Assembly: GCA_026003175.1 (NCBI GenBank)
Contig: BPGT01000001.1
Span: 1,402,839-1,466,838 of the forward strand
Origin: Armatimonadota bacterium
Lineage (GTDB): Bacteria > Armatimonadota > HRBIN16
Length of the DNA stretch: 64,000 nucleotides
Direction: 5' to 3'
Position numbers and translations under genes: made by a program. The notes under the pieces are model-generated. The model did no database searches. It was not told the DNA's origin and saw only the letters and a list, made by a program, of their open reading frames with translations. How positions within the stretch are numbered: position 1 is the stretch's first letter; the number at the start of each line of letters is the position of its first letter. Below are positions 30,674 through 49,799 of the stretch, one piece after another.

Positions 30674-33600
30674 TTGAGAGGCGCTAACGGTCAGGTGTCG
30701 CCCGCGTTGCGGGCATGGACGTTGTTGCTGTGGGTTACAGTCGCTGCGATATGCCTGAACCAGTCATTGGCTTTGGCGCAGCCTAAACCCCGCTTCCCGC
30801 GTTTTCCTATTGTCGGAAGCCCTGATCGCGCACCGGTGGACCTCAAGCGCGATTGGGATATGCTGAGGGGACGTGGTACACCGGAGCAGACCACCAACCT
30901 CACCAACTCCCCGGCGGATGAATTGGGACCCGTGTGGTCCGGCGATGACCGGTTCATCTACTTCTACTCCAACCGCGTCAGCGCGACCAACGGCGCTCGG
31001 GGCACAAACTACCATATCTACACCATCCGCCCCGACGGCACCGACGTCCGCCAGATTACTACCGAAGAGGGCGACCAGATCGAACCCGCACTCTCGTTCA
31101 ACCAGAACCGGCTTGCATACGTGGCACGCGCCTCCGCCGCAGCGCCTTATCACCTTTTTGTGCGCAACCTCGTCACCGGCGCGGTGCTGAGCCTCACGCG
31201 CGAGCGAACCGACCTTCCCTTCACCGAGGTGCGCCAGCCGACCTGGTCACCCAGTGGGCTGGAGATCGCCTTTGCAGGTAAGGTAGGTAGCGTCTACCAT
31301 ATCTTCGTTATCAACGTGGATACAGGTGTGATTCGCCAGGTTACCACCGGGAACTGCAGCGACACGGAACCCGCCTGGTCGCCGGATGGGAGCCTGATAG
31401 CCTTCACTTCCAACCGTGCGGATGCCGCCGGAACCAGCACGAAGCCAACCACCGACATCTGGACGGTGACCGCCTACTCGCTGGACCCAAGCTCTGCGGT
31501 GGTGCGTCGCGTTACCAACTTCTCCGCCAACGGCGTGGAGAGCACGAATAAACAGGCGACATGGAGCCTGCGCGAGCTGCCTCGCTTCATCACCGGGGCC
31601 AACCGCCCCATCCTGTGGCTGGCATTCGCCTCCAACCGACAGGATACCAACAACGACGGCACCCCCGATGCGGTCGGTAGCACTTTTGACATCTACTTCA
31701 TGGACGCTACTGTTCTAGCCGATGGCTCCGGCTTACAGACGGTGGAACCTACCGCGCAGATTTACCATATCGACGCGCGCGATCCTGCCTACAGCTCCGA
31801 CGAGGAGATGCCCACCTGGTCGCAGTTCACTACCGCCCTCAAACTGGCGCACGTAAGCAACCGCACCGGTAACTGGGACATCTTCTCCACCTCGGTGGTG
31901 GACGTGAACGCGCCGGAACTGCAGAAGGTGGACACCGATAAAAACGAAATCGTGCAGGTAATACCGCGCGTCTCCCTACCCGGCACCACAGTGCGCATCC
32001 GCGCAAAGGTGCGCGACCTCGAAAGCGGGTTGGCGGCGGTTTATGCCCAGATTAAGGACCCCGATAGCAAGTATCAGGATGCCCAGGGCATTGAGCATAA
32101 GATTTACTTTAACGCAGGAACGACAATGGTGGAGGGGAGCTCAGTCATCCTGACGATTGTTCCCTATGAGTTCGATTGTCAGCCTATCGACCCAGCCACG
32201 AATACTTACGTGACATTGAGCGGTACTTTGCCTGGCAGACCTACGATGATGCTGAGTCGATTCTCGGGCTATCCGAGAGAGATGTACGAACCGGGCTCGG
32301 ATGACTTCAGTGCTTTCAGCGGTTCATCACATCCGCCGAAGAGCCACTGGTTGCAATTATGGGACGATGGTCCCGCTTCACAGGGAGGGCATGAACCAGA
32401 AGGTGAGGTCGCTGGTGACGGCATCTATACCAACACCTGGGCAACGCCGGCAGATAACCCCAGCGACTGGTACCTGGACATCATCGCTTACGACCGGGCG
32501 GTGAACCCGTTCCGCCCCACCCAACAGTCCAACTGGAAGATTTACGACAATGTTTGGGGCTTTTCCACCAAGCCATTCATTGCATCCAGCAAGGTGCTGT
32601 TCGTCTCCGACTACACGCTGGGACAGAAATTCTTCCAGGGACGGTTCGGCATCAACTTCGCGCTGGATAACGTGTTCTTCACCTACTGGGGAGCGGAGTC
32701 CTGGCTAACCGATATCGACATTAACTATCTGCCGTCGTCTGGACAGTACCTTAGTAGCGAAACCGATACCCAGCCTAAGCCGGTAGCAGATACATGGAAT
32801 ACGCTGGGAGCAGGGTCGTATGGAACCCGTCAGCCAAATGGTGTACCCTGGCCCAACCTTGCTCCCTGGTCGGTTGATCCGCGCATTTCCGACTCACAGC
32901 AATACGACATCTGGCGAATTCTTTGCCGTGGCCCGATACCGCAGTCGGTATACCTGGCGTATCTCCCCAGGCGCGAGCAGCAGCCGAGTCCCTCTAATCC
33001 GCGCACGGCAACGCAGACGGTGCTCGTAGCCGACCGTTGCATCATCTGGGCGGCGCCTTATGCAGGCGATGTGTGGGCAGGCAACGGCACCATCACCGAT
33101 CTGAACACGCAGCGCGACCTGACGCAGTTTGTGGCGCAGGGCGGGCGTCTGTTGCTTACCGGACAGGATATCGGCTGGGCGTTGACGCTTGACAATACGC
33201 AACCCAATCCCTTCTTCACCAACATCTTGAAGGCGCAGTTCTTGAACGATCAGCATCCTTCGCTCGACCCGCTGAACCGCAACGACTTGTCGGGTATCGA
33301 TGATCTAGCTCACCCGTTTGCGCACACGACATGGGATGAGCATAATTACTACGAAATCACCAGTAATGGACTGGTATACGATCCGCCATGGCGAGGTGGG
33401 GCGCGTCACCTACAACCCGGTCCTGACATCAACAACCTGAACTTTAACGATGGCGCGCCGAACCAGCGATATGTGGACGGCATTAACCCACTGGCTCCTG
33501 CACGTGCTGAGCTCACCTTCGAGGATGGCACGCAGGGACTCATCTACTGGTTCGACGCCGGTACTGGCTCTAAAGTGGTCTACGCTAGCTTTGGGATAGA

Positions 33601-36100
33601 GGGACTTAACCGGCACTATTACACCTTCGGTAACCCTGCGGTAGCTTACGGTCGCAACGTTCGCGGAAAGCTAATGCATAACGCCATCTGCTGGATGCGC
33701 ACGGGAACCATCATCGGCACTGTGCGTGACGTGGAAGGTGGCGTACCGATGGAAGGTGTACTGGTGCGAGCCATCTTTAGCGGCGGCAACGAGCGTACCA
33801 CTGGTCCGCAAGTGGGCACTGCTTTCACTCGTAAGGATGGTACGTACAATATTGGTGGGTTAGACGCCTCAGTGTACCAGGTGGTAGCAGCCTTCCCCGG
33901 CTACACCGCGCAGAAAGTGACGCTGGCTGGTGTACACGGCGGCGACTTGGGTGAGACCAGCTTCCTGCTCACCAAAGCGGAGCCGGGCGTGCTGAAGGGT
34001 AAAGTCACCTATCCCGATGGCACAACTCCCATCCAGGGCGCGCTGATAACCGCAACAGAGGTCATCACCGGTCAGCAGTTCACCGCCGTATCCGATGTGC
34101 AGGGCAACTATGTGATTCCGCGCCTGCCGACCAGCCAGGTGCAGGATGGCGGTGGATACGATGTAACCGCAACCAAAGCAGGCTTCTCGCCCGACCAGCC
34201 GCCGCAGCCAGTGCGCGTGAGCATCCCGCCTGCAACCGAAGTGACGCAGGACTTCCGCCTGAAGCCTGCTCCGGGTAACGTCACCGGTACGGTTACCCGC
34301 GCAGATACCGGCGACCCCATCGCCAACGCGCTGGTGACCATCAAGAGCGGCACGACCACAGTGGCGTCCGCCACTACTGATCAGAACGGGCAGTACACCA
34401 TTACCGGTGTGGACGGCGGAACCTATGAAGCGACCGCATCGGCGGCTGGCTTCTCGCCGCAGACAAAGACCATTGTCGTGCAGTCCAACCAGACGATTAC
34501 CGAGAACTTCCAGCTGCAGCCGGTGCCGCCGGGCAGTATCTCCGGTCTGGTTATCCGACAGGGTGATCAACAGCCCGAAGAAGGTGTGGAGGTAGAGGTG
34601 GTCTCCAGCAATAAGACCTACCGCACTACCACGGGACCGGCGCAGACCGAGAACGGCTATACCTTCAACTGGCGTATCACCGGCGTGGACGCGGGCGACT
34701 ACACGGTACGCGTGCACAAGAGCGGGTTCACTCCGGTGCCCGATTCGCGCACGGTGACCGTGCAGTCGGACACCGAGACCACCGGCGTGAACTTTACGCT
34801 CAAGCCGCTGCATACCTTCGCTGCAGGGCTGAGCCTGATCTCGGTGCCGTTTGACTATCCGACTCAGGACCCGGCGGATGTGCTGAACGTGCCGGTAGCG
34901 GACCGTCCGAACTTCAAGCTGTTCGCATGGTCGCTGGGACGGTACGCCACTTACCCGAACGTGCCCGCCGACCGGGTGCGCCTGGGACGCGCCTTCTTCC
35001 TGAACACGCCCAGAACGCTGGTTATCACACAGGAAGGTGCGTCGGCAGATACGGGCGTCCCGTTTGAGATACCGCTCACGCCCGGCTGGAACCTGATTGG
35101 CGTGCCATACAACTTCTCGCTGCGCTGGCTGGATATGAAGGTGCGCGACGGGGCAAACGTCATCAGCGTGCAGGAGGCGATTGCCAATCAGGCGATACGC
35201 AACGGACTGTGGACGTATGTGAGTGGGCAGTATGTGCTCGCCACCGAACTGCAGCCGTGGATGGGCTACTGGGTGCGGGCGAACCGCGCGGTGACCCTGC
35301 TGGTTGACCCTGCAGGACGCAGCCGCAGTGCGCTCACCCGCTCGGCAGAGCCGGTTCAGACTGACGGCTGGCTGGTGCAGATTGCGGCTAGCGCAGGCAG
35401 CGTGATGGATACCAGCAACTACTTCGGTGTGGCGAGCCGCGCCTCCGACGGTTATGATGCCCTGTTCGACGTGGAGCGACCGCCAATGCTCGACGGACAG
35501 CCGATGGTGCAGGTGGCGTTCGAGCATCCCGAGTGGGGCGCAACTGCTGGACAGTATGCAGTGGACGTGCGCTCGCGAGCGGTGGGACAGGTGTGGCGAT
35601 TTACGGTGACCACCAATGTCACCAACACCGACGTAACCCTGCGCTTCCCGAATGCGGCGCGCGTGCCTCGTCATCTGCAGCTGGTGCTGGTGGATGAATC
35701 CACAGGACAGCGTCGCTCCCTGCGCAACCTGTCTGCCTACACCTTCCGCAGCGGAGAAGGGCAGACCACCCGCTCCTTCCGTGTGGAGGTGCAGGACGCC
35801 AGAGCCACCAGCCTGCGCATCAGCAACGTCAGCGTGCTGAGCCGGGGCAACAGCCGCACCATCTCCTTCACGCTGAACGGCGAGGCGGCGGTGAGCGTGG
35901 TGGTGCTGCGCAACGGTCAACCCGTGCGCGAGTTGCTGGCTCAGTCCACACGCAGTGCGGGCATCAACACAGTGACGTGGGACGGGCGCGACCGCCACGG
36001 CGTGTCCCTGCCCGCTGGAGCATACACCGTGGAGATACGCGCCACTAGCGCGGATGGACAGGTCGCGCGCAGTGTGGTGCCCGTGGTGCTGACACGATAA
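30674..36100 (+). CDS. Giant exported protein A: PD40 propeller, carboxypeptidase-regulatory-like repeats, shared C-terminal module
   Basis: An 1808-residue protein with an N-terminal signal peptide (hydrophobic core LLLWVTVAAICL, then ALAQ). Residues about 60-410 form TolB-like PD40 propeller blades (TEPAWSPDGSLIAFTSNR). About 640-1000 is a region with RLLLTGQDIGWAL that resembles a glutamine-amidotransferase-like fold. Four carboxypeptidase-regulatory-like beta domains start near 1013, 1107, 1200 and 1287. Residues about 1384-1808 are the C-terminal module shared with the proteins at 38067, 41066 and 43758, with GWNLIGVP, MGYWVRA, an FlgD-like domain (TVTWDGRDRHGV) and the tail PVVLTR. The start is TTG. 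Role inferred: large cell-surface or secreted structural/binding protein. Confidence 0.8.
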   Translation: MRGANGQVSPALRAWTLLLWVTVAAICLNQSLALAQPKPRFPRFPIVGSPDRAPVDLKRDWDMLRGRGTPEQTTNLTNSPADELGPVWSGDDRFIYFYSNRVSATNGARGTNYHIYTIRPDGTDVRQITTEEGDQIEPALSFNQNRLAYVARASAAAPYHLFVRNLVTGAVLSLTRERTDLPFTEVRQPTWSPSGLEIAFAGKVGSVYHIFVINVDTGVIRQVTTGNCSDTEPAWSPDGSLIAFTSNRADAAGTSTKPTTDIWTVTAYSLDPSSAVVRRVTNFSANGVESTNKQATWSLRELPRFITGANRPILWLAFASNRQDTNNDGTPDAVGSTFDIYFMDATVLADGSGLQTVEPTAQIYHIDARDPAYSSDEEMPTWSQFTTALKLAHVSNRTGNWDIFSTSVVDVNAPELQKVDTDKNEIVQVIPRVSLPGTTVRIRAKVRDLESGLAAVYAQIKDPDSKYQDAQGIEHKIYFNAGTTMVEGSSVILTIVPYEFDCQPIDPATNTYVTLSGTLPGRPTMMLSRFSGYPREMYEPGSDDFSAFSGSSHPPKSHWLQLWDDGPASQGGHEPEGEVAGDGIYTNTWATPADNPSDWYLDIIAYDRAVNPFRPTQQSNWKIYDNVWGFSTKPFIASSKVLFVSDYTLGQKFFQGRFGINFALDNVFFTYWGAESWLTDIDINYLPSSGQYLSSETDTQPKPVADTWNTLGAGSYGTRQPNGVPWPNLAPWSVDPRISDSQQYDIWRILCRGPIPQSVYLAYLPRREQQPSPSNPRTATQTVLVADRCIIWAAPYAGDVWAGNGTITDLNTQRDLTQFVAQGGRLLLTGQDIGWALTLDNTQPNPFFTNILKAQFLNDQHPSLDPLNRNDLSGIDDLAHPFAHTTWDEHNYYEITSNGLVYDPPWRGGARHLQPGPDINNLNFNDGAPNQRYVDGINPLAPARAELTFEDGTQGLIYWFDAGTGSKVVYASFGIEGLNRHYYTFGNPAVAYGRNVRGKLMHNAICWMRTGTIIGTVRDVEGGVPMEGVLVRAIFSGGNERTTGPQVGTAFTRKDGTYNIGGLDASVYQVVAAFPGYTAQKVTLAGVHGGDLGETSFLLTKAEPGVLKGKVTYPDGTTPIQGALITATEVITGQQFTAVSDVQGNYVIPRLPTSQVQDGGGYDVTATKAGFSPDQPPQPVRVSIPPATEVTQDFRLKPAPGNVTGTVTRADTGDPIANALVTIKSGTTTVASATTDQNGQYTITGVDGGTYEATASAAGFSPQTKTIVVQSNQTITENFQLQPVPPGSISGLVIRQGDQQPEEGVEVEVVSSNKTYRTTTGPAQTENGYTFNWRITGVDAGDYTVRVHKSGFTPVPDSRTVTVQSDTETTGVNFTLKPLHTFAAGLSLISVPFDYPTQDPADVLNVPVADRPNFKLFAWSLGRYATYPNVPADRVRLGRAFFLNTPRTLVITQEGASADTGVPFEIPLTPGWNLIGVPYNFSLRWLDMKVRDGANVISVQEAIANQAIRNGLWTYVSGQYVLATELQPWMGYWVRANRAVTLLVDPAGRSRSALTRSAEPVQTDGWLVQIAASAGSVMDTSNYFGVASRASDGYDALFDVERPPMLDGQPMVQVAFEHPEWGATAGQYAVDVRSRAVGQVWRFTVTTNVTNTDVTLRFPNAARVPRHLQLVLVDESTGQRRSLRNLSAYTFRSGEGQTTRSFRVEVQDARATSLRISNVSVLSRGNSRTISFTLNGEAAVSVVVLRNGQPVRELLAQSTRSAGINTVTWDGRDRHGVSLPAGAYTVEIRATSADGQVARSVVPVVLTR

Positions 36101-36175
36101 TCACAGGAGCATCGCCCCGTAAGGGGGAGAGGATATCGACGAAATGAAACGAACGAATAGGGGGAATCGGAAAAG

Positions 36176-37951
36176 GTGAAACGCTTCCGGAAAGGGTTAA
36201 TCGCTCGCGCGTTAAGCTGGATGCTTATCGTGGCAATGATTGTGCCATGGCTGGCGTCTCTGGCACCAGTGCCTGCTGTGGCGCAACAGGCAGCGCGCGG
36301 GACTGTGGCAGTGGTGGACTTCATCGTGCGTCCCGGACTGCAGCAGGCGTTGCTCAGCCGCGCCGCCACAGATGCTGTGGCGATGGAACTGTCGCGCGCG
36401 GGCTTTAATGTGCTTCCGCGCACGCAAGTGCAGAACGCGCTGCAGGAGCTCTCTTTAGAGCCCGTACTGGACCGCCTGGGGGTGATGAAACTGGGCAAAA
36501 CCCTTGCGGTGGATTCTATCGTGTCCGGCGAAGTGGTGGCGGTGACGGTGGAAGGCTCGCCGAGAACTGCTCGTGTGACTCTTCTGGTGCGCGTGACTGA
36601 CGTAGCATCGGGTGAGGACGTCAACGGCGCCGCTGTCACCGGACAGAGCAACCCGCGAGTGGGCTACGTTGGAGACGACGACCAGCTCATCCGGGAAGCG
36701 ATAAGCAACGCCGCATTGCAAGCGGCGACCACGATTGCCTCCTACACCATCCCTGAAGCCACTGTATTGAATACCGTTGGCACTGATGAGGTGCTGCTCA
36801 ACCGTGGTACCCGCAGCGGTATTCAGACCGGCATGGAGATGATAGTGCTGCGTGGTAGAGATGTCGTCGGGCGCATTCGCGTTACCCGTCCGAGCACCAG
36901 CGATGCGATAGCCAAAGTGATCTCCAGCACACTGGGTATCCAGCCCGAAGACAAGGCTCGCGCCGTGTTCAAGCTGCCTGCGGTCACGTTCGACAGAGGC
37001 AAAGTGAAAATCACGGAACCTCGCGCCAAACCCAAGTCGGCAGGCATAAGCAACCTGGGCAAAATACTGGTGGTGGCGGGCCTCATCTTTGGTGCGCTGC
37101 AAATCGGCAAAGGCGGTAATTCCGGGGTGGAAGGACCGAAGGCAGAGGCCATTACAGACCCCACCGGTCCGGCGGTTAAAATCTCGTGGAAGCCCAGTGT
37201 GTTCGCTCAGGCGAACCAGGATCGTGTGCTGTACCACATCTACCGCGAGCCAGCGGACCCCACTCGTCCGCGAGTACCGGTGCTGACCGCCAGGTCCAAC
37301 GAGAGCTCAGTGGTAGACACCCAGACCGCTCGCACGGTAAGCTTCGTGGACATCCCGCCCGGTCAGGAAGTGGATACCCCGGACCTGACCGACGAGGAGG
37401 ATATACCAGGGGTCACTGCCGGGCAATCGTACCGCTATGCGATTACACTGGTTTACCGCTTTGTGTCGCCCTTCATCGGGCAGACCGGCGGCGGTGGTCA
37501 GGGGCAGCAGCAGCAACAGGTAACCTACCGTGAGAGCGACAAGGCGTGGACGGGACTGGCTACTCCGCTCGCTCAGCCGGTGCTGCTGCGCCCAGCAAAC
37601 GGCAGCCAGGATGTAAACCTCGGCTCGGTGGATTTCGAGTTCCAGGCGGTGCCGGGGGCGCAGGCTTATCGGGTAGAGGTCTCAACAGACCCCACCTTCC
37701 AGAATAAGTCGCTCTCGTTCTACACCGACGAGGTGATGTTGCCCGCCGGGGCGACGGTGACCATTCGCAACGTCAACCTGCGTACGAAGTTTGCTGGTGC
37801 GCAGCGTCTGTACTGGCGGGCAGGTGCACGCAACATTAACGACCAGCCCGGACCCGCTCCCTGGCCTGGCGATAATCGCGGGCAGTTCCGATACATCTGG
37901 AGCGAGGGCTTCTCGTTTACACCGGCCGTGGAGCCTCCCCCTGCTCCCTGA
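36176..37951 (+). CDS. CsgG/FlgT-like exported protein 1
   Basis: A 591-residue protein with a signal peptide (MLIVAMIVPWLASL...AVAQQ). Residues about 40-190 resemble CsgG/TolB-N-type domains (VAVVDF, then DSIVSGEVVAVTVEG). Residues about 195-265 resemble the C-terminal domain of FlgT (LNRGTRSGIQTGMEMIVL). A hydrophobic segment near 295 (ILVVAGLIFGALQIG) is followed by two fibronectin-III-like domains and a proline tail. CsgG forms the curli export pore and FlgT a flagellar basal ring; whether this protein makes a pore or ring is unknown. The GTG start overlaps AAAAGG. It lies between two of the giant proteins. Confidence 0.65.
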   Translation: MKRFRKGLIARALSWMLIVAMIVPWLASLAPVPAVAQQAARGTVAVVDFIVRPGLQQALLSRAATDAVAMELSRAGFNVLPRTQVQNALQELSLEPVLDRLGVMKLGKTLAVDSIVSGEVVAVTVEGSPRTARVTLLVRVTDVASGEDVNGAAVTGQSNPRVGYVGDDDQLIREAISNAALQAATTIASYTIPEATVLNTVGTDEVLLNRGTRSGIQTGMEMIVLRGRDVVGRIRVTRPSTSDAIAKVISSTLGIQPEDKARAVFKLPAVTFDRGKVKITEPRAKPKSAGISNLGKILVVAGLIFGALQIGKGGNSGVEGPKAEAITDPTGPAVKISWKPSVFAQANQDRVLYHIYREPADPTRPRVPVLTARSNESSVVDTQTARTVSFVDIPPGQEVDTPDLTDEEDIPGVTAGQSYRYAITLVYRFVSPFIGQTGGGGQGQQQQQVTYRESDKAWTGLATPLAQPVLLRPANGSQDVNLGSVDFEFQAVPGAQAYRVEVSTDPTFQNKSLSFYTDEVMLPAGATVTIRNVNLRTKFAGAQRLYWRAGARNINDQPGPAPWPGDNRGQFRYIWSEGFSFTPAVEPPPAP

Positions 37952-37974
37952 CGGTGGCATCAGTTCGCGATGGT

Positions 37975-38016
37975 TGCGCCCCCTCTAATAACATGACGAG
38001 ACGAGGAGGGGGCGCA
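37975..38016 (+). promoter_or_regulatory. GC-rich hairpin in the leader of the protease gene
   Basis: An 11-base perfect stem TGCGCCCCCTC (37975-37985) / GAGGGGGCGCA (38006-38016) with a 20-base loop, between the CsgG-like gene and the protease gene. There is no U-run. It could attenuate, stabilise a processed mRNA end, or hide the GAGGAGG element. Confidence 0.45.
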
Positions 38017-38066
38017 GAGTAAACAATATCATGGTGAAAAGACGACTCATGCGTCGGAGGTGTCAG

Positions 38067-41015
38067 GTGAAAATGCGCGCGCGGATGTTTCGCATTCTGG
38101 CGACGTTTGTTCTGCTGATAGTGTTTAGCATAAGCGCTGTACCGGAACCGGCAATGCGTCAGTTCGTGGCGGGAGAGCTGATTGTCTCGCTCAACCCGAA
38201 CGCCAGCGTGGAGCAGCTCCAGAGCCTGGCGCAGCAGATGGGTTTGACCATAGACTACCTGGGCGTGCCGGGCGTGTACCGCCTCATCATGAAGGGCGCA
38301 AACGAGGGCACGGTGACCGATGAACAAACGCTGGAAGCAGTGCAAAAGCTGAGGGACACCGGTCTCTTTGCTTACGTGGGACCAAACAGGATTTACTATC
38401 CTGTGCAGCGAGAGGTGCGCCCGAACGACCCCCGCTACGGCGAGCAGTGGGGGCTCGAGATGATCAACATGCCGCGCGCGTGGGTGTTTCAGAAAGGCAA
38501 GTCCAGCATTGTGCTGGCTGTTGTGGATACCGATTTTGAAGTGACGCACCCGGACCTGAAAGACCGTCTCCTCCCGGGCAGGGATGTGGCGGACGACGAT
38601 AACGACCTTTCTGCCCCGGGCACTGGCGGCGGTTGGGGACACGGTACCCTTGTGACTGGTGTCGCTGGCGCAACGACCAACAACGGCATCGGTATAGCGG
38701 GAGTCACCTGGGAGGGCGTGAAGATTTTGCCGGTGAAAGCATCTCCCGACAGCAGCGGCGGCGTCTTCCCGATGGACTCGCTTCTGCGAGCCGTGCAGTA
38801 CTGTATTGACCAGAAAGCGAACGTGGTCAACATGAGCCTTGCTGGAGCGGACGCCAACGACCTGCCAGACCTGACAAACCCCGTGACCCAGCTGATTCTG
38901 ACGGCAACCCGGCAGGGCATCGTGTTTGTTGCAGGAGCGGGCAACTCATTCATGGAAGGAAACCCGCCGATGTGGCCCGCGAACATCGCCTCGGTGAGCG
39001 ACCTTGTGTTATCGGTAGCGGCGGTAGGACCCCGACGCGAACATGCGATGTACTCCTCAGCCCGTTCCTATAACACGGTAGCCGCCCCCGGTGGTAACTC
39101 CTGGGCAACTGGCAATGTGACAGATGATATCCTGAGCACGGCGACCGGGGGAACTTACGAATATGCCCTGGGCACCTCTCTGGCTACCCCGCATGTCTCT
39201 GGCGCGGTAGCTATCCTGCTCTCGCAGGGAGTGAAGCCTACAGAGGTCAAGAAGTTGATTCAGGATACCGCCGCAGCGGACGGACGCTCCGTGCCAAATC
39301 CTGAATTTGGTTATGGAATCCTCGATGTATACAACGCTATCCGTCGGGTGGCGACCTCGGCGGCTGTGGTCAGCCCCGCCCGCGCCGAAGTAGTGGAGAC
39401 GCTCAAACCCACGCTTGTCTTCAGCGTGACCAATACTTCGGCGGCGCTGGTGAGCATTACTATCGACGGGCAGGCGGTGCCGTCCACTGAGATTGCCGAT
39501 AACTACGCTTCATCGCCGGACGGCATCGTGGGTACCATCAAGCTGACCCGCAGACTCGCGCCGGGCACACACACAGTACGGGTGACTGCACGGAATGTGA
39601 ACGACCCCACCATCACTAGCACCGACGAGACCACGTTCCAGGTGTCTCCTCACGTGCTGCGGGCAGGGCGATCGTTGATTTCCATCCCGTACTTCCAGCC
39701 TCAGTCTGGTCAGCCTACCCGCTCGGTCACCGCTGAGGCGGTGCTGGGAACCGGTTTCCAGATGTTCCGCTGGCTGCCTCAGGGACGGTATGCGAAATAC
39801 AGCTCATGGGGCGCACCGAAAGACCCCGCTGCCTCCTTTGACCAGACCTCCGAGCAGGTAGGTCCCGAAGGCGGTAGCACGATGGCGCCTCTGGGGCTGG
39901 CGTACTTCATCGACCTGCCCAGCGATACGCCGGTGCTCACCGAGGGCACTCCTGCACCGGAAGTTCCGTACCGCATCTCCTTGAAGGCGGGCTGGAATAT
40001 GATTGGTAATCCGTTCGCCTTCAACGTGCCGTGGGTAGCCTGTGAGGTGGAAACGACCAGCGGTGTGCGCATGAGCCTGCAGGAAGCGGCGGATAAGAAT
40101 ATCATCCTGCCCCAGCTGTTCCGTTATGAGAACGGCGTGTACACCTGGCAAACTGCGCCCGCTGGCGTGCTCTACAAGTGGGAAGGATTCTGGGTGCGCG
40201 CCTTTGAGGATTGCACGCTGATTGTGATGCCGTTGCCAACGGGTGGACGCTCTGTACCTGCAGATACTACTCTTTCCGGCGGCAGTGGCTGGCTGCTGCG
40301 CTTCGCGGCGACGGTAGGTGTGGCGCGCGACGGCAACACTGTTATCGGGGTGAACAGTCGCGCGGCGGACGGCTACGGACGCGAAGACGTGTTAAAGCCG
40401 CCGTCGCTCAGCCCCTATGTGAGCGTCAAGGTGCTAAATACGGATTGGGGAGCACACGCGGGGGCGTATGCGCAGGACGTGCGCCGCAGCGACAACCGCC
40501 GCCAGATATGGCGACTGCACGTGGAGACCGACCAGGTGAACGAGCCGGTAACCCTGCGGTGGGAAGGTGTGAAAGATGTGCCTGCACGGGTGCGTCTGAC
40601 GCTGGTGGATGAGTTGACGGGTAGAAGGATAGCGATGCGCACAACGGGCAGCTACACCTATCAGCCCGGCGGCGTCAGCAGCCGCAGCTTCACCGTGATT
40701 GCGGAACCGGATGTTTATTCCGCTTTGCGCGTATCCTCGGTGCGGGTGCGGGCGACACGAGGTGGTGGGTTCACCATCGACTACACGCTCTCCGCCGAAG
40801 CGCAGGTACAGATTACTATCACCGACGCTACTGGCAAAGCGATAACCAGTCTGGTGCAGAACACCCGCTCTGCAGGTGTCAACAGCGCCACGTGGAACGG
40901 GCGTGACAGCAAGGGTGTGGCGGTGCCATCGGGAAGCTATCTGGTGCGCATCGAGGCGACCGCTGCTGACGGTGAGCGCACCCGCACGGTGACGCCGATT
41001 GTGATCACTCGATAG
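38067..41015 (+). CDS. Exported subtilisin-type serine protease (S8) with shared C-terminal module (protein B)
   Basis: A 982-residue protein: signal peptide (ILATFVLLIVFSISA), a fervidolysin-type propeptide (FVAGELIVSLNP...), then the catalytic domain with Asp in AVVDTDFEVTHPDL (near 154), His in GGWGHGTLVTGVAGA (near 191) and Ser in GTSLATPHVSGAVAILL (near 370). An Ig-like spacer follows (about 435-525), then the module shared with proteins A, C and D (SLISIP, GWNMIGNP, EGFWVRA, SATWNGRDSKGV, tail PIVITR). I start at the GTG at 38067, six bases after GGAGG; the ATG at 38031 lacks a site. It may mature or release its module-bearing neighbours. Confidence 0.85.
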   Translation: MKMRARMFRILATFVLLIVFSISAVPEPAMRQFVAGELIVSLNPNASVEQLQSLAQQMGLTIDYLGVPGVYRLIMKGANEGTVTDEQTLEAVQKLRDTGLFAYVGPNRIYYPVQREVRPNDPRYGEQWGLEMINMPRAWVFQKGKSSIVLAVVDTDFEVTHPDLKDRLLPGRDVADDDNDLSAPGTGGGWGHGTLVTGVAGATTNNGIGIAGVTWEGVKILPVKASPDSSGGVFPMDSLLRAVQYCIDQKANVVNMSLAGADANDLPDLTNPVTQLILTATRQGIVFVAGAGNSFMEGNPPMWPANIASVSDLVLSVAAVGPRREHAMYSSARSYNTVAAPGGNSWATGNVTDDILSTATGGTYEYALGTSLATPHVSGAVAILLSQGVKPTEVKKLIQDTAAADGRSVPNPEFGYGILDVYNAIRRVATSAAVVSPARAEVVETLKPTLVFSVTNTSAALVSITIDGQAVPSTEIADNYASSPDGIVGTIKLTRRLAPGTHTVRVTARNVNDPTITSTDETTFQVSPHVLRAGRSLISIPYFQPQSGQPTRSVTAEAVLGTGFQMFRWLPQGRYAKYSSWGAPKDPAASFDQTSEQVGPEGGSTMAPLGLAYFIDLPSDTPVLTEGTPAPEVPYRISLKAGWNMIGNPFAFNVPWVACEVETTSGVRMSLQEAADKNIILPQLFRYENGVYTWQTAPAGVLYKWEGFWVRAFEDCTLIVMPLPTGGRSVPADTTLSGGSGWLLRFAATVGVARDGNTVIGVNSRAADGYGREDVLKPPSLSPYVSVKVLNTDWGAHAGAYAQDVRRSDNRRQIWRLHVETDQVNEPVTLRWEGVKDVPARVRLTLVDELTGRRIAMRTTGSYTYQPGGVSSRSFTVIAEPDVYSALRVSSVRVRATRGGGFTIDYTLSAEAQVQITITDATGKAITSLVQNTRSAGVNSATWNGRDSKGVAVPSGSYLVRIEATAADGERTRTVTPIVITR

Positions 41016-41065
41016 AAACGGGTGGAAGCAACATGACACACGGGGAAGATACACAGGGAGGACAG

Positions 41066-43709
41066 ATGATGAAACCCTTCGCAATCGTCGGTTGGAGCAC
41101 ACGACGATGGACGGTATGCGTGCTGATGGCAGGGTTGCTGGTAGGCATCCTGTCAGCCGCCGCGCTAGCACAGCCGAGCAACGACTTTCGCGCCGTATAC
41201 CTCAATAACGGTATCCTGTCCACCGGTATCGGTCTGGATGGGCAGGTTGGCATCGGAGGCACGAACTACGATGCCATCGGCCGCATCACGCTTGGCACAG
41301 TGCAGGGTGCGCGCTTCACTACCGATGACGACAACAAGCCGCTGGTGTTTGCGTACCCCTATCCCTGTGGCAATTTCGGTGTAGTGACGGTGCGCATCGT
41401 AACCGCCGATACAACAGATGACCTTATCTGGGGGTCGGATGACGGCGAATGGGTGGATGGCATCGAGCCGTTCGCTGACCGCAGCGGACGCTATATGATT
41501 GTCGGTCGCTGGCGCCACCCCGACACCAACATCCGCGTGGACCAGGTAGTGGAGCTGGTGGGCGCTTACGCACGTATCACGTGGACCATCACCAACGAAG
41601 ACATACAAACCCATCAGGTGGGCATTCGCTTCCTGGTCGATGAAGAGGTGGGTAGCGGTTTCAATGTTACTACTCCCGATTACGTGCTGGTACCCGGCTA
41701 CTTCCCCGTTCAGAACGATTTGGACTTGCAGAGTGGACTGGTGCCCCCATACGTGGATGCAGCGCCTCGGCGCACGATGAACGCGCCGATTCTGCGCTGG
41801 CTGTTCAAACAGAACGGCTTGACAACGCCCGATAGAGTGGTTATCAGCCAGTTCTCTCGGCTGTCGGCGAACCTGTGGGACTTCACGTCTATCCCGGAGG
41901 CAGAGATTACTGACCATGCCATTGCTACCTACTGGAACCCGCAGTCGCTGGCGCCGGGCAAGTCCCGCACCATCGTGACGATGATCGGACTTGGCACCAG
42001 CACGAACGACCCCTCCGGTCGCTACGCGCTGGACACCGAGTCGCCCGGCGTGGTAGGGTTGGACGCCAGCAAAACGAACCAGCTGTCGCCGGAAGAGTTT
42101 ACCATTAGCGCGTCGGTGACGAACTTCCTGTCGTTGAACTCCTTACAGAACGTGGCGTTTGAGGATGTGAGCCTTGCCATTTCGCTGCCTCGGGGGCTGA
42201 CGCTGGCGGATGGGGAGAACATCACCAAAACTATCCCCACCATCCTGCCCGGCGAGGTGGCGACGGTTAGCTGGCGCGTCAGACCGACCGGTGAGAGGGT
42301 AGGTGAGTTGACGTACCGGGTGTACTCTACGGTGTCGCCCGGCAGCCTCTCGAAGAGCGTTTCGCGCACGCTCGTCGTGCCGATGACGGCGAAGGTAGAC
42401 CTGAAGACCGGCTTCCAGATGGTGAGCTTGCCCTTCGCTTTCGATAACGCCGACCCCGCGGCGGTTCTGGGGCTGGAGCAGGGCGACTTTGCCCTACTGC
42501 GCTGGGACCCCACCCAGCGGCGCTACGCGCTGGTCAACAGCGTCCGTCCGGGTGAAGGTTACTGGCTGCGGGTAAACACCGACCAAACCCTGTCCTTGAA
42601 CGGAGCCAAGATTGCGGGAGATGCGTTTGGCGGTACTTTGCGTCTGCCGCTACCGCAGGGTTGGGTGCAAATCGGCAACCCGTATCCCTACCCGGTTCCC
42701 ATCGGTCTGATACGTTTTATCGATACCACGCAGGGGTTGGCTATTAGCTTTGCGGAGGCGGTGCAGCGTGGACTGGTACGCAGCGTGCTGTTCTACTACG
42801 ATACCACGCCGCCTGCTGGCTACAAGCTCATCTCGCTGTATGGCGACCCCTCCGCGCCGATGATCCCTGGCAGGGGGGTACTGGATGTTCGTGGATAGCC
42901 GTAATCTGGAGATGATATTCCCGAACGTGGTTGCGCCCGGAGCAACTATCACCTTCCCGACGCGGTCGAGCATGGCTCCTGTACGCTGGCAGGTGCAGTT
43001 CAGTGCGCAAAGCGAAGGCAAACAGGACGCAACTGCCATCATCGGCGCAGCCTCTCGCGCGGTGGATGGCATCGACCTCTACGATATGCCCAAGCCGCCT
43101 GCTCCGGTGGAAGAGAGCGTGCGCACGATGTTGATTGCGCCCGATGGGCAGAATATACTGGCTCAGGACATTCGCGCCGACGGCACCCGCCGACAGGTTT
43201 GGGAGATGGTGGTTTCCGCGCCGAAGCCAGACAGTGCGGTGGTGTTGCGATGGAACGGAATGCAGGGCGTGCCTTCATCCCTGCGGTTGAAGCTGGTAGA
43301 CACCGAAGCGAAGGTCACGCGCGACCTGCGTGCCACCTCGTCCTACACCTTCACGGTGGGCGCGTCCGGTAGCCGACGCTTCCAGATAGTGGCGGAACCT
43401 CGTGGCACGGCGGGACTGCGCATCACCTCGTTGCGGGTCACGCGTACGCGCGGCGGCGCAGTGGCTATCAGCTACGCTTTGAGCGATAGCGCCAGCACGA
43501 AGGTGCGAATCCTGGGCGCAACAGGCAAGGTAGTGCAGACCCTGCAAGCAGGAGAAGCCGCATCGCGCGGCGTAACAAATCTGACGTGGAACGGACGCGA
43601 CGGCGCAGGCATCGCGGTACCCGCAGGAACCTATCTGGTTGAGGTCACTGCGACCTCCGAAGATGGGCAGACCGCACGCGCCGTACAACCGGTAGTGATA
43701 ACGCGGTAA
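41066..43709 (+). CDS. Large exported protein C with shared C-terminal module (apparent +1 frameshift)
   Basis: A signal peptide (MAGLLVGILSAAALA) precedes an unrecognised beta-rich domain (about 30-330; GTNYDAIGRITLG, DLIWGSDDGEW), an Ig-like domain, and the shared module from about residue 442 (GFQMVSLPF, GWVQIGNPY). The frame breaks in the six-base G-run 42873-42878, which is followed by TAC. With one G fewer, GYW joins MFVDSRNLEMIF and the frame continues to the tail PVVITR at 43709, about 880 residues. RGYWMFV then aligns with GYWVRA / GFWVRA / GYWIRA of its paralogues. As written it is two reading frames, 41066-42898 and 42885-43709. The start is ATG at 41066 or 41069 after GGGAGG. Confidence 0.75.
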
Positions 43710-43757
43710 GCGAGGGAGGATTGGCGAAGAAAAATGGTTAAGGGAGAGAAACCAACC

Positions 43758-46700
43758 ATGCGAAACGGGTGGAAGTGGCTTACATTATGTTTCGCCAGCC
43801 TGTGGGTGCTGACATGGGCTGTCAGTAGCCAGGCAGCGCCGAGCATCGGCGGTATTTCTATCCGTCCGCACAGGAACCTTCAGCAAGGAGCAACCGCAGA
43901 CGGTTCCGTAAACACCTGGTTTGTGGTCGGCGCGGATGTGACGCCTGGCTCCGACGAAGAGATTGTCAATACGGTGACGCTTGCTGTGGACGGGGTACTG
44001 GTCACATTATCGCCCATCGGTGGTGTGCGTTACCAGGCTGCCTTTCGCGGAAGCGACGTAGGGGTGGGCACACATAACCTTACTGTGGTGGTCGGCTGGA
44101 GCAATAACCAGGGACCTCAGAACCCTGTTACCGCTGACGCAGGCACTCTCATCGTCATCCCGCAGATTACAAACGTATTGTCGCGCGCCCAGCTGTGGCG
44201 CGTGAAGACGCTCTTCGACGATGAGGTTCTGGCAGCTGCTGACCCGTTGCAAAGAGACCCGCTTCGCCCTGACCCGCTGGACCTGCTCGCGCCGGACGAC
44301 GGTTCCAGCTCCACTCGCTACCGCTACCGCGTGGTTTACCGGCATCCATACGGGATTCCGCCGCAGCCGATCTATGAAGCGTTCAATATGAACCCTGCAA
44401 CCGGATTCTTTACCCACCAGTTTGTGGTAGATACCTTTATGCCACCACCTCCGTTTACCGCAGTACCCCATGCGACGCCAGTATGGGGCACCGGCAGGAA
44501 AGACACCAACGATTTCGGTGGTGTGTACATTTATATCGATGGAGAACCCCACTGGATGGTGCCGGTGTATAAGTTCGACTCCAGCGGTAATCCTGTGCCG
44601 CTTGGGACGCTGACGCCGCAGGATTTCCAGAACGGCGTAGTGTACGAGTACATCTGGGAACCTACCCACTACGAAAGTCAGTCCGGCGACACGCGCTACG
44701 GTTTGCCGTACAAGTACGGTCGTCCTACAGATAACGCCTTCGTGGTGGGCGCGTACGGTGTTCATGGATACGACTTCCGGGCAGGGGTAGACCATTTCCC
44801 GGTGGACATTGCCGGCGCTACCGCCGTCTTTGCACCTGGTAACCCGTTCCAGGACCCTGCCTATCCGCTGCCGTCTGCGGAGCATCCGCGTATTACGCCC
44901 GTGCTCAACGGCTTCCGTTCCATGTTCCAGCCGAACTTCCTGCATCTGGGCACGGTGCGCAAAGCAGCAGATGATACCACTGTCTTCTGGAACCCGGACC
45001 AGCAGCTGCCCAACGGACCGTTCCATCCACAACCCGGTCCGACCGCCCCGGGCACACAGTCCTTCCCGGTGGCGATGGGCACGGAAGATACGGTGTTCGA
45101 GTTCCGTATCGGCTACCAGGGTGACCGGGATCCGGCGTACATCAAAGTCTTCATCAGCAACGACTACACGGGTGAGAGCTATCCCTTGCAGCTGACGATG
45201 CAGCCTGAAAACCCCGCTCAAACCAACCCGGGCGTGTACGTGGCTCGCACGCGGCTGCCGCGGGGACCACATACCTACTACTTCGAAGCGAACGACGGCA
45301 CGCGTACGGTGCGATTCCCCGTGCGCCCGCTGGACGACCCGGTACTGCCCGCTGGTGGCATTCATACGAAGGGACGCAACTTCTTCATGGGACCCTTCGT
45401 CAATACCAAAGCGGTGCTCTCGGATTACTCGGTGACGCCAGCAACGGGCAAACAAGGCACCAACTACGTGTTCCGCGTAAAGTACACCGACCCGAACAAC
45501 CAACGTCCGGTGCGCGCACGGTTGCACATCCAGCTGAAGGATGACCCTGCGCCGCGCGGAACGTGGGTCACAGTGAACATGGTGCGTGAAAGCCCGGATT
45601 CGGTACAATACTCCGATGGGGTGGTGTACAAGTTCGATACGTCCTCCGACCCCAGTATCGTCCTGCAGCCGGGCACGAGACACTACTACTTCGAGTTCAG
45701 CGATAACTGGGGCGACCCATACGACCCCAACACCCTGCTGGAAGGTGAAACCACACTCCTGCCAGCCAACGCGACCACCGACCCGAACGACGACGCCAAC
45801 AAGGTGGTGGTGGAGAACACTATCGCTGGACCGATTGTGGTGGACAACAAGCAGCCGTATCTGGTGAAACCCGCTACCGCAGTCGGTACCGACGTGAACT
45901 GGGCACCCGACCCGGCGGATGTGGGTGGTGATTACCTGGCATCCGATACTTTCCAGAACACGGCTACGTCGTTCACCTTCCGCACCAAGTACGTGGACAA
46001 GAACAACGATGCGCCCACATTTATCAAGGTGCAATACCGCAACACGTCCGACCCGGGCAGCGTGTTCGAGCGCGACCTGAGCATCGCGCCAGGTAGCGGC
46101 ACACTGCACTCGGACGGTGTGGTATACCAGGTGACCGGTATCAAGCTACCTGTGGGGCAGACGGAGTTCCGCTTCACCACATCCGACGGCACAGTAGTAG
46201 TGACTACTGGCTGGCAGACCGGTCCCAACGTGGTGGCGAACACCGCTCCCGAACTGCTGGAGCCGACCGGCGGCACGGTCACCCCGACCAGCGGCGACCA
46301 GGGTACGCTTTACACCTTCCGCGTTATCTACAAGGATGCTGAGGGGCAGGCGCCGGTGTCCACCAACGGCGGATTCATCCGCGTGTGGATTGACGGCACC
46401 GAGTATGACATGGTACCCAACGGCACGCCTGACTATGTTAACGGCGCGCTGTTTGAATACGCAACCACGCTGGGCGCTGAACCCGCTATCCACCAGTACC
46501 ACTTTGTGGCATCGGATGGTGGTAACACCGTCCGCCTGCCGGTGACGGGCGAGTTCAGCGGTCCTAACGTAAACGACTTTAACAAACTCTCTAACCCGCG
46601 CGTGACCATCACTCCTGCAGGTAACAACGAGCCGCGCGGGCGTAGCGATGCGGCGTACGCCTTCCAGATTACCTTTACCAACCCCAACGGCACTCCGCCG

Positions 46701-49700
46701 GTGGGTAATATCGAGGTGCTGATAGACGGCACGCCGTACGTGCTGAACGAAACCATACCCGCTAGCCCGACATCTGCGGACTTCCGCAACGGCGTGACCT
46801 ATAGCCTGACGCTCAACGCACCGGCTGCGCCGGTGACGCCCGGACAGCACACCTTCCAGTTCCGCTTCCAGAACGGCGAGTTCATGACCTCGCAGCAGAA
46901 CGTAGCGGTGAACCACAAACCGGTGCTATCGGGCAACAAGGTGACCACCGATGGCAGCACGGCGGTAACGCAGGTTTCTAAGGTGGCGCGCCCCATCTTC
47001 GTGGTCACCTATCAGGACGCGGATAACGATGCGCCCAAGTTCGTGAAGCTGTTTATCGACGGCGACGCGACGGGCGTGAACATGACCTCCACCGGTGGTA
47101 CGGACTATCGGGCGGGCGTGGTGTATCGCTATCAAACTCCTGCTCCGCTGGCAATTGGTAACCACACCTATCGCATCGCGGCGCAGGATGCGGACCCGTT
47201 CGCCGAGGATGCAGCAGAAGTCAACGGTGCGTTTGAGGTGTTGAACTTCAAGCCGATATTGAGCAACGGTACGGTAACCCCCGCGACCGGCTCACATAAC
47301 GCAGCGTTCACCTACAGCGTGAAGTACACCGATGGTGATGGCGATGCTCCCGCTTTCGTGCGGGTGCGCATCCTGAAGCCGGACAGCACCGAGCAGGTGC
47401 TCGACCTCACTGGCTCGGGCAACTACGCACAAGGCGTGACCTTTACCGGTAGCATCCCGGCGAACTCGCGCCTGCTGGTGGGCGACTATCAGTTCCGCTT
47501 TGAGGCGAACGATGGCACCGTGGACGCCGACCCGTTGCTAGGTAACGGACCCACAGTGACCAACACTAAGCCGGCATTGAGCAACGGTTCGGTGGTACCG
47601 GTGCGCGAGTCAGGAAGCGCAGCGTTCCGCTACTCGGTGACCTATACCGATGCAGATGGCGACGCTCCAGAGTTCGTGCGGGTGGTGGTTGTCCAGCCTG
47701 ACAACTCCGAACGCACGCTGGATATGACCGGTAGCGGCACCGACTACACCACGGGCGTTATCTTCACCGCGGACGTGCCGGCGAACTCCAATCTCGCCCC
47801 CGGCAGCTATGCCTTCCGCTTCATCGCGCGAGACGACTACGGCGCAGACGCCGACCCGCTGACCGGAACCGGCCCGCAGGTGAACAACCCGCCGCAGCTG
47901 TTGAATCCGAGGGTCACTCCGGCTTCGGGCAAACTTAGCACAGAGTACGTGTACGAGGTGACCTATAAGGATGCCGATGGGGACGCTCCCACAGCGTTCA
48001 GCGGCACGCCCGGCGGTGAGGTGCAGGTCAATATCGACGGCACATGGTACGCCATGACGAAGGTCGGCACGGGCACCGACTACGTGGCTGGCGTCACCTA
48101 CCAGTTCAAGCGACGCCTGAGCGAGGGCACACACACCTTCCAGTTCCGCGCTCAGGACCAGTTTGACGCGGCAGTAGGTCCGGGAACAACCGTGCAGACC
48201 GGTCCGACCGTGAACAAGGCAACCCTGACGCTCACCGCACCCAGCGGTACCGCGGCGCTCGGTCAGACCGTTACGCTGAGCGGACAACTCACCTTGTCGG
48301 GCAGCACAACGGTCAACGCCTCGGTGCAGGTGGTGATTTCGCCACCGGTAGGCACGGGTGAGATAAAGAACGTCAACACCGCTGCCGACGGCTCCTTCTC
48401 GGTGCAGTTCACGCCGAACGTGACCGGCACATGGTCTGCCTACGCCTCGTGGGCTGGCAATGACGAGTACGACGGCGTGAATAGCGCACCGATAACGATA
48501 CAGGTGCAGGGGGCAACGTTTACCATCCAGCCGGGTACCAGCATGGTTTCCATCCCGCTGATACCACCATCCAGCGACCCCGACTTTCTGTTCGGGTTCG
48601 ACACCAGCACCATCAATCTCGTCCGCTGGTCACCGCTGGCGAATCGCTATGTGAGCAGTGGCAGTGTGGTGGCGCAGGCTGGTGCAGCTTACTGGGTGCG
48701 TGCGACGAGTGCGGTGAACGTATCGCCGGTGGGTACGCTGGCAGACCAGACCCAGCCGTTCTCCATCCAGCTCGCACAGGGCTGGAACATGATAGGCTCG
48801 GTGTATCTGCAACCTACGCTTCTGGGCGCAGCGCAAGTGCGCGTAGCCGGTCAGGTGATGACCCTTGCCGAGGCGGCGAACAGAGGTCTGGTACGCGACT
48901 ACGCATGGCGCTACGACCCGGTAGCTCGCGCCTACAGGCTAGTGAGCGCAGGTGAGAACCTGCAGCCCTTCGTAGGTTACTGGATACGCGCTCTGGTAGA
49001 CGCCGAGCTGATTCTCAACCCGCCCGGAAGCCGTTCCGCAGGCGGTACGCAGATAACGCGCTCGGCGAAGATGAACGAAGGCGACTGGATGGTGCAGCTG
49101 GTAGCCCGCGCTGGCGAGGCTGTGGACGCCGACAACTACATCGGCGTGTCGAGCAATAGCCTGCAGGTGGAGAAGCCTGCTCCGCTGGAGAACTATGTGC
49201 ATGTGCAGCTGCTATCGCCGGAGAGCAACGCTCCGCTAGCAGTGGATGTGCGACGCAGTGCCGGAGCGAAGCAGGTGTACACTTTTGAAGTGCTCACCGA
49301 CATGCCGAACACACCGGTTACCCTCTCCTGGCCCAATCTGGCGAAGATTAGCCGCAACGTCGAGATGGTACTGGTGGATGTAGACGCCAACGTGCGGCGC
49401 GTCCTGACCACCCTGCCGTCTTACACCTACAACAGCGGTGCGAACGGCGGCACTCGCCGGTTCCAGATAATCGTGCAGCCACGTGTGCGCACGGCGGCGA
49501 TAATTAGCAACGTGCGTGTGGCGCAGACCCGTTCGGTGGGCGGCACTCGCGTGCAGATTAGCTACGCGCTGAGCGCGGAGGCGTCGGTAGCGGTGCAGAT
49601 TACCGATGCTACCGGCAAACCGATACGCGCTCTGCAGGCTGGACAAGCGGCTGGACGCGGTGTGAACAGCCTCACCTGGGACGGGCGCAACAGCGCGGGC

Positions 49701-49799
49701 GTGGCGGTGCCGGCTGGCGCCTACATGGTGAGGATAACCGCCACCACCGAAGACGGACAGACCGCCAGCGTGGTTCAGCCGGTCGTCCTGACGAGGTAA
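43758..49799 (+). CDS. Giant exported protein D: Ig/cadherin-like repeats, shared C-terminal module
   Basis: A 2013-residue protein with a signal peptide (LCFASLWVLTWAVSSQA). From about residue 540 to 1490 it has about ten degenerate beta-sandwich repeats of about 100 residues, with recurring YTDADGDAPEFVRV, GTDYVAGVTY and a closing tract such as THTFQFRAQD. An Ig-like domain follows, then the shared module (about 1587-2013) with TSMVSIPL, GWNMIGS, VGYWIRA, SLTWDGRNSAGV and tail PVVLTR. The acidic DxDGD loops suggest calcium-stiffened domains. This architecture is that of a fibrous adhesin or surface-layer-associated protein. The ATG at 43758 has AGGGAGAG; the ATG at 43734 is poorly placed. 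Confidence 0.8.
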   Translation: MRNGWKWLTLCFASLWVLTWAVSSQAAPSIGGISIRPHRNLQQGATADGSVNTWFVVGADVTPGSDEEIVNTVTLAVDGVLVTLSPIGGVRYQAAFRGSDVGVGTHNLTVVVGWSNNQGPQNPVTADAGTLIVIPQITNVLSRAQLWRVKTLFDDEVLAAADPLQRDPLRPDPLDLLAPDDGSSSTRYRYRVVYRHPYGIPPQPIYEAFNMNPATGFFTHQFVVDTFMPPPPFTAVPHATPVWGTGRKDTNDFGGVYIYIDGEPHWMVPVYKFDSSGNPVPLGTLTPQDFQNGVVYEYIWEPTHYESQSGDTRYGLPYKYGRPTDNAFVVGAYGVHGYDFRAGVDHFPVDIAGATAVFAPGNPFQDPAYPLPSAEHPRITPVLNGFRSMFQPNFLHLGTVRKAADDTTVFWNPDQQLPNGPFHPQPGPTAPGTQSFPVAMGTEDTVFEFRIGYQGDRDPAYIKVFISNDYTGESYPLQLTMQPENPAQTNPGVYVARTRLPRGPHTYYFEANDGTRTVRFPVRPLDDPVLPAGGIHTKGRNFFMGPFVNTKAVLSDYSVTPATGKQGTNYVFRVKYTDPNNQRPVRARLHIQLKDDPAPRGTWVTVNMVRESPDSVQYSDGVVYKFDTSSDPSIVLQPGTRHYYFEFSDNWGDPYDPNTLLEGETTLLPANATTDPNDDANKVVVENTIAGPIVVDNKQPYLVKPATAVGTDVNWAPDPADVGGDYLASDTFQNTATSFTFRTKYVDKNNDAPTFIKVQYRNTSDPGSVFERDLSIAPGSGTLHSDGVVYQVTGIKLPVGQTEFRFTTSDGTVVVTTGWQTGPNVVANTAPELLEPTGGTVTPTSGDQGTLYTFRVIYKDAEGQAPVSTNGGFIRVWIDGTEYDMVPNGTPDYVNGALFEYATTLGAEPAIHQYHFVASDGGNTVRLPVTGEFSGPNVNDFNKLSNPRVTITPAGNNEPRGRSDAAYAFQITFTNPNGTPPVGNIEVLIDGTPYVLNETIPASPTSADFRNGVTYSLTLNAPAAPVTPGQHTFQFRFQNGEFMTSQQNVAVNHKPVLSGNKVTTDGSTAVTQVSKVARPIFVVTYQDADNDAPKFVKLFIDGDATGVNMTSTGGTDYRAGVVYRYQTPAPLAIGNHTYRIAAQDADPFAEDAAEVNGAFEVLNFKPILSNGTVTPATGSHNAAFTYSVKYTDGDGDAPAFVRVRILKPDSTEQVLDLTGSGNYAQGVTFTGSIPANSRLLVGDYQFRFEANDGTVDADPLLGNGPTVTNTKPALSNGSVVPVRESGSAAFRYSVTYTDADGDAPEFVRVVVVQPDNSERTLDMTGSGTDYTTGVIFTADVPANSNLAPGSYAFRFIARDDYGADADPLTGTGPQVNNPPQLLNPRVTPASGKLSTEYVYEVTYKDADGDAPTAFSGTPGGEVQVNIDGTWYAMTKVGTGTDYVAGVTYQFKRRLSEGTHTFQFRAQDQFDAAVGPGTTVQTGPTVNKATLTLTAPSGTAALGQTVTLSGQLTLSGSTTVNASVQVVISPPVGTGEIKNVNTAADGSFSVQFTPNVTGTWSAYASWAGNDEYDGVNSAPITIQVQGATFTIQPGTSMVSIPLIPPSSDPDFLFGFDTSTINLVRWSPLANRYVSSGSVVAQAGAAYWVRATSAVNVSPVGTLADQTQPFSIQLAQGWNMIGSVYLQPTLLGAAQVRVAGQVMTLAEAANRGLVRDYAWRYDPVARAYRLVSAGENLQPFVGYWIRALVDAELILNPPGSRSAGGTQITRSAKMNEGDWMVQLVARAGEAVDADNYIGVSSNSLQVEKPAPLENYVHVQLLSPESNAPLAVDVRRSAGAKQVYTFEVLTDMPNTPVTLSWPNLAKISRNVEMVLVDVDANVRRVLTTLPSYTYNSGANGGTRRFQIIVQPRVRTAAIISNVRVAQTRSVGGTRVQISYALSAEASVAVQITDATGKPIRALQAGQAAGRGVNSLTWDGRNSAGVAVPAGAYMVRITATTEDGQTASVVQPVVLTR

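What the first reader, a model, noticed from the sequence alone, without database searches (positions are those of the whole stretch)
30674..49799. Four giant exported proteins share one C-terminal module of about 430 residues
Proteins at 30674, 38067, 41066 and 43758 have unrelated N-terminal parts, yet their ends match box by box: SLISVP / SLISIP / QMVSLP / SMVSIP; GWNLIGVP / GWNMIGNP / GWVQIGNP / GWNMIGS; GYWVRA / GFWVRA / GYWMFV / GYWIRA; YAVDVRS / YAQDVRR / LAQDIRA / LAVDVRR; VLVDE / TLVDE / KLVDT / VLVDV; TWDGRD / TWNGRD / TWNGRD / TWDGRN; and a final VVLTR / IVITR / VVITR / VVLTR. A common end on otherwise different exported proteins is what one expects of a sorting, anchoring or secretion signal, as with type IX C-terminal domains. 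The FlgD-like Ig fold is known; the whole module and its role are, as far as I know, not described.
Basis: partly seen in the sequence, partly recalled or inferred. Interest (0 to 1): 0.8.

Follow-up and report, generated by a model that had tools for sequence, protein, structure and literature searches.

The report
Shared C-terminal tail on exported proteins
Many very different exported proteins of the bacterial phylum Armatimonadota end in the same three-part tail that almost always finishes with an arginine and resembles a known secretion address tag, although the machinery that reads that tag elsewhere was not found in this phylum; the tail is probably an unrecognised surface-sorting or anchoring signal.

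Summary
The tail is not one block but three separable parts: A (about 180 aa, an internal duplication with no Pfam family and no PDB fold match), B1 (about 145 aa, no Pfam or NCBIfam family) and a terminal FlgD-Ig domain. The genome has 10 B1 copies. B1 occurs in 209 of 251 sampled Armatimonadota genomes, at up to 48 copies per genome. It sits at the extreme C-terminus of subtilases, clostripain-like proteases, WD40, beta-helix, deacetylase and other proteins. In an independent set of 90 proteins, 87 end 91-111 residues after B1. The last residue is Arg in 82 of 92 tail clusters (45% identity), against 27 of 208 background ORFs. The end domain is a sequence relative of the PorU and type IX (T9SS) type A tails, and in T9SS-type relatives A+B1 precedes such a tail. 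But no genome has SprA above cut-off, the own genome lacks PorV and PorU, and the PorV-contacting lysine is almost always missing. Best reading: a phylum-specific C-terminal sorting or anchoring tail that works like a T9SS tail without being one (0.5). A and B1 are probably stalk domains. The reading machinery is unknown. The third protein is frameshifted here.

The parts
30674..36100 (+). p1: 1808-aa exported protein (PD40 propeller, CarboxypepD_reg repeats) ending in the A+B1+FlgD-Ig tail
   Evidence: signal-peptide-like start by inspection
34823..35353 (+). part A of p1
   Evidence: HMM and alignment
35366..35797 (+). part B1 of p1
35849..36100 (+). terminal FlgD-Ig domain of p1, ending VVLTR
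   Evidence: PF13860 E=3.6e-9
36176..37951 (+). CsgG-like protein, conserved member of the locus across the phylum
38067..41015 (+). p3: S8 subtilase (982 aa) with the tail; longest ORF starts at 38031
   Evidence: PF00082 E=4e-42
39660..40280 (+). part A of p3
40287..40709 (+). part B1 of p3
40755..41015 (+). terminal FlgD-Ig domain of p3, ending IVITR; TIGR04183 23.7 bits against a cut-off of 23
41066..43709 (+). p4: about 880 aa, frameshifted here; the only module protein at this locus in the two f12 genomes read
42404..42877 (+). part A of p4, cut by the frameshift
42870..42885 (+). frameshift: one extra base in a G run relative to L012 and L014
42984..43400 (+). part B1 of p4
43449..43709 (+). 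terminal FlgD-Ig domain of p4, ending VVITR
   Evidence: PF13860 E=2.1e-14
43758..49799 (+). p6: 2013-aa protein with the tail; longest ORF starts at 43734
48531..49064 (+). part A of p6, two GWNLIG/GYWVR repeats; AF2 pLDDT 93.7
49083..49481 (+). part B1 of p6
49533..49799 (+). terminal FlgD-Ig domain of p6, ending VVLTR
   Evidence: PF13860 E=9.6e-14
49874..50644 (+). LpoB/DUF3280-like exported protein, conserved neighbour
50663..52603 (+). invasin Ig domain followed by a predicted OM barrel with a weak LptA-like stretch; family in 243 of 251 genomes

Best explanation
The tail is a phylum-specific C-terminal sorting or anchoring module of exported Armatimonadota proteins. The proteins leave the cytoplasm by Sec (signal peptides). 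The terminal FlgD-Ig domain with its exposed C-terminal Arg is then recognised at the outer membrane by a partner and either guides the protein to the surface or holds it there, much as a T9SS tail is held by PorV. Parts A and B1 are rigid spacer or stalk domains between cargo and tag. Shown: position, cargo diversity, phylum-wide spread, conserved terminal Arg, sequence relationship to FlgD/PorU/T9SS tails, absence of SprA above cut-off. Inferred: surface location, recognition of the Arg, and the identity of the partner, which is unknown (neighbouring CsgG-like and barrel proteins are candidates only).
For: B1 in 209/251 Armatimonadota genomes and 155/179 of the best ones, up to 48 copies in one genome. 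Tail at the C-terminus in 94/97 complete ORFs. In an independent set from 34 genomes, 87/90 proteins stop 91-111 aa after B1, 83 of them at 99-107. Last residue Arg in 82/92 clusters at 45% identity, against 27/208 unrelated ORFs of the same loci. Cargo ranges over subtilases, C11, M6, deacetylase, beta-helix, WD40, LVIVD and CARDB proteins. The end domain matches the C-terminus of PorU (residues 1080-1154 of 1156, E=7.9e-6) and FlgD; in Calditrichota, KSB1, Marinimicrobia and Cyclobacteriaceae A+B1 precedes a T9SS-like tail. A confident AF2 model exists (pLDDT 94).
Against: No experiment. No dedicated reader found: the barrel next door also occurs in genomes without B1. Families f17 and f22 have A-only C-termini on orthologous proteins, so the FlgD-Ig part is dispensable there. 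Most f12 genomes sampled have a single B1 copy, odd for a general signal. FlgD-Ig folds can be purely structural. Outer-membrane passage could be by another route such as T2SS, with the tail acting only as an anchor.
Confidence: 0.5

Rival explanations
1. The tail is only a structural or adhesive end of surface proteins: a stack of beta-sandwich domains that caps the chain or binds polysaccharide, with no targeting role.
For: Parts A and B1 occur without the FlgD-Ig part; AF2 shows stacked beta domains; FlgD-Ig is a common Ig-like fold.
Against: Fixed distance from B1 to the stop, and a last-residue Arg conserved in 89% of tail clusters while neighbouring positions vary, are hard to explain for a mere structural cap; position is almost never internal.
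Confidence: 0.25
2. The proteins assemble with each other and with the conserved neighbours (CsgG-like, LpoB-like, barrel) into one envelope complex, and the tail is the assembly contact, as the FlgD-Ig domain is in the hook cap.
For: Conserved gene order p1, CsgG-like, S8, p4, (p6), LpoB-like, barrel across many Armatimonadota loci; the two f12 loci read keep only p4 with the CsgG-like and barrel genes; the end domain matches FlgD hook-cap structures.
Against: Most copies in rich genomes lie on other contigs on hydrolase-type cargo.
Confidence: 0.15
3. It is a true T9SS tail and the machinery is present but too diverged to detect.
For: One of the four window tails passes the TIGR04183 cut-off; PorU and RemZ chains match the profile; a short SprA-like hairpin motif occurs in OM barrels of 159/251 genomes.
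Against: SprA over cut-off in 0/251; in the own genome no PorV and only tail matches for PorU; the PorV-contacting Lys is present in 12/12 relatives from other loci but in 1/89 Armatimonadota tails; the SprA-like matches cover about 100 of 2319 positions.
Confidence: 0.07

Closest known systems
T9SS type A C-terminal domain (TIGR04183, PF18962)
   Same: C-terminal beta-sandwich on diverse Sec-exported cargo; sequence relationship through PorU and RemZ; basic last residue in the T9SS-type relatives too
   Different: Conserved PorV-contacting Lys absent (Pro is common at that place); SprA not found above cut-off in the phylum sample, PorV and PorU not found in the own genome; different ending, Arg as last residue
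FlgD Ig-like domain (PF13860)
   Same: Fold and sequence, about 30% identity to the Salmonella hook cap
   Different: Sits on exported non-flagellar proteins; every above-threshold FlgD_ig of the own genome lies in a module protein or in the part-A giant, so no flagellar FlgD was seen
PEP-CTERM, LPXTG and similar sortase tails
   Same: Short conserved C-terminal tag on varied exported proteins, often basic at the end (own knowledge)
   Different: A folded domain without a membrane helix at the end

Membership tests
T9SS type A sorting domain | Folded beta-sandwich domain at the extreme C-terminus of Sec-exported cargo | tested here: met
T9SS type A sorting domain | Conserved Lys that contacts PorV (RemZ Lys1110, PMC10994853) | tested here: not met
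   Lys at -8 to -4 in 1/89 Armatimonadota tails against 12/12 others; 8/92 clusters
T9SS type A sorting domain | SprA translocon in the same genome | tested here: not met
   0 of 251 over cut-off; only a motif of about 100 residues
T9SS type A sorting domain | PorV carrier and PorU sortase | tested here: not met
   own genome: none for PorV, only tail-domain matches for PorU
T9SS type A sorting domain | Passes the TIGR04183 curated score | tested here: inconclusive
   one of the four window tails, 23.7 against 23 bits
T9SS type A sorting domain | Cleavage of the tail and attachment to LPS at the surface | not testable with these tools
   needs biochemistry
FlgD Ig-like domain | Score above the PF13860 gathering threshold | tested here: met
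   all four window tails, 36.9 to 55.8 bits against 27
Flagellar hook protein FlgD | Full-length FlgD match or flagellar context | tested here: not met
   NCBIfam FlgD equivalogs far below cut-off
Known Pfam/NCBIfam family for parts A and B1 | Any match to a curated family | tested here: not met
   A: no Pfam family in 41 members; B1: no Pfam or NCBIfam family in 28 members

The most novel reading that the evidence does not exclude
Armatimonadota use an undescribed outer-membrane export or anchoring pathway whose substrates carry a FlgD-Ig tail ending in Arg. This pathway and T9SS read descendants of one ancestral C-terminal tag with different machinery.
Probability: 0.25. Interest if true: 0.85.

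Novelty: new variant of a known kind. Interest (0 to 1): 0.6.

Why it matters
How Armatimonadota place proteins on their surface is not described in the papers searched here. A tag on up to 48 proteins per genome, with a single conserved end residue, gives a directly testable handle. It also separates the T9SS-type tail from T9SS itself: the tail fold is used in a phylum in which the SprA translocon was not found, so annotation of such tails as T9SS signals is unsafe there. Part A is a widespread domain with no Pfam family and a confident model without a PDB match.

Tried and rejected
T9SS membership: rejected on the SprA, PorV, PorU and lysine tests. Barrel 50663 as dedicated secretion channel: not supported, since it is also present where B1 is absent; it may instead be the LptD equivalent, as PF04453 finds none in the genome and its middle gives only a weak LptA match (E=0.14). 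SprA-like barrel in the own genome (L088 6627-9530): no meaningful PDB match. Part A fold search: no match at E<1e-3. Programmed frameshift in p4: not favoured, since three close relatives read through without it. Literature searches for Armatimonadota with T9SS, FlgD or sorting domains gave nothing relevant.

Full report
Observation. The window is part of a 4.1-Mb genome whose nearest named relatives are Armatimonadota assemblies such as HRbin16 and Chthonomonadia bacterium Ch118. The four C-termini align over about 420 residues with E-values of 1e-52 to 1e-68, while their N-terminal parts hit different Pfam families: PD40 and CarboxypepD_reg; subtilase; an NEW3-like domain (weak); Big_3_5 (weak). 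The third protein is frameshifted here; in three close relatives the gene is intact and the window has one extra base in a G run.

Anatomy. The module has three parts. Part A (about 180 aa) is an internal duplication (hhalign probability 97%). It has no Pfam family and a confident AF2 model (pLDDT 93.7) without a PDB match at E<1e-3. Part B1 (about 145 aa) has no Pfam or NCBIfam family. The last 80 residues are a FlgD Ig-like domain (PF13860). The full module folds with pLDDT 94. The parts can stand apart. In this genome a 257-aa secreted protein is B1 plus FlgD-Ig only, and the gene next to it encodes a 3689-aa protein that ends right after part A. In families f17 and f22 orthologues of p1, p3, p4 and p6 end in part A alone.

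Spread. B1 occurs in 209 of 251 Armatimonadota genomes (155 of 179 good ones), part A in 236, FlgD-Ig in 224. Copy number runs from one, in most f12 genomes sampled, to 48. The own genome has ten B1 copies, and all FlgD-Ig hits above threshold lie in module proteins or in the part-A giant. In Calditrichota, KSB1, Marinimicrobia and Cyclobacteriaceae A+B1 stands directly before a T9SS-like tail ending in the KMVLIK type.

Position and end signature. Of 97 complete A+B1 proteins in Armatimonadota loci, 94 have the module within six residues of the C-terminus, and 76 of 87 with a readable start have a signal-peptide-like segment by a simple rule (this rule is a heuristic, not SignalP). An independent set of 90 B1 proteins from 34 genomes was then read: 87 stop 91-111 residues after B1 and 83 of these at 99-107; three lack the FlgD-Ig part. 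The last residue is Arg in 78 of 90. After clustering both sets at 45% identity, 82 of 92 end in Arg, against 27 of 208 unrelated ORFs from the same loci. Positions -2 to -6 vary. Such constraint on the very last residue suggests that the C-terminus itself is read (inference).

T9SS test. The end domain matches PorU residues 1080-1154 of 1156 (E=7.9e-6), FlgD and RemZ, so it is a relative of T9SS tails. But SprA is over cut-off in none of 251 genomes, and in the own genome PorV is not found and PorU only through its tail. PMC12611786 calls SprA FCB-specific. PMC10994853 identifies one conserved Lys of type A tails that contacts PorV. A Lys at -8 to -4 is present in 12 of 12 relatives from other loci and in 1 of 89 Armatimonadota tails, where Pro is commonest. 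It is therefore like a T9SS tail but does not meet the definition.

Neighbourhood. The gene order p1, CsgG-like, S8 (p3), p4, (p6), LpoB-like, OM barrel is kept in many Armatimonadota loci. The two f12 loci read keep CsgG-like, p4 and the barrel. A short SprA-like hairpin motif in other OM barrels occurs in 159 of 251 genomes; by hand count from the lists it is found in 8 of 42 B1-negative and 151 of 209 B1-positive genomes. This is a lead only, since phylogeny is not corrected.

Cargo. In rich genomes the tail ends subtilase, C11 clostripain, M6 peptidase, polysaccharide deacetylase, beta-helix and cellulose-binding-like proteins, a spectrum like that of T9SS cargo.

Conclusion. Most likely (0.5) a phylum-specific C-terminal sorting or anchoring tag; next (0.25) a structural or adhesive end; then an assembly contact (0.15) or hidden T9SS (0.07).

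Noticed in passing
window 42870-42885: p4 is frameshifted by one extra base in a G run; intact in three close relatives.
   Followed up: yes
L084 16471-17244 (-) and 5371-16440 (-): A 257-aa secreted protein made only of B1 and FlgD-Ig lies next to a 3689-aa protein that ends in part A; same-genus relatives of the giant also stop at the end of part A.
   Followed up: partly
L088 6627-9530, L089 7242-10730: Outer-membrane barrels with a SprA-like hairpin motif of about 100 residues, present in 159 of 251 Armatimonadota genomes.
   Followed up: partly
window 50663-52603: Invasin-Ig plus OM barrel protein with a weak LptA-like stretch, in 243 of 251 genomes while PF04453 LptD is not found in the own genome; possibly the phylum's LptD.
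   Followed up: partly
L060: A contig titled Euryarchaeota archaeon carries A+B1 and a T9SS-like tail; probably a misbinned contig.
   Followed up: no
L054, L055, L071: WOR-3 proteins end after B1 without any FlgD-Ig or T9SS tail.
   Followed up: no
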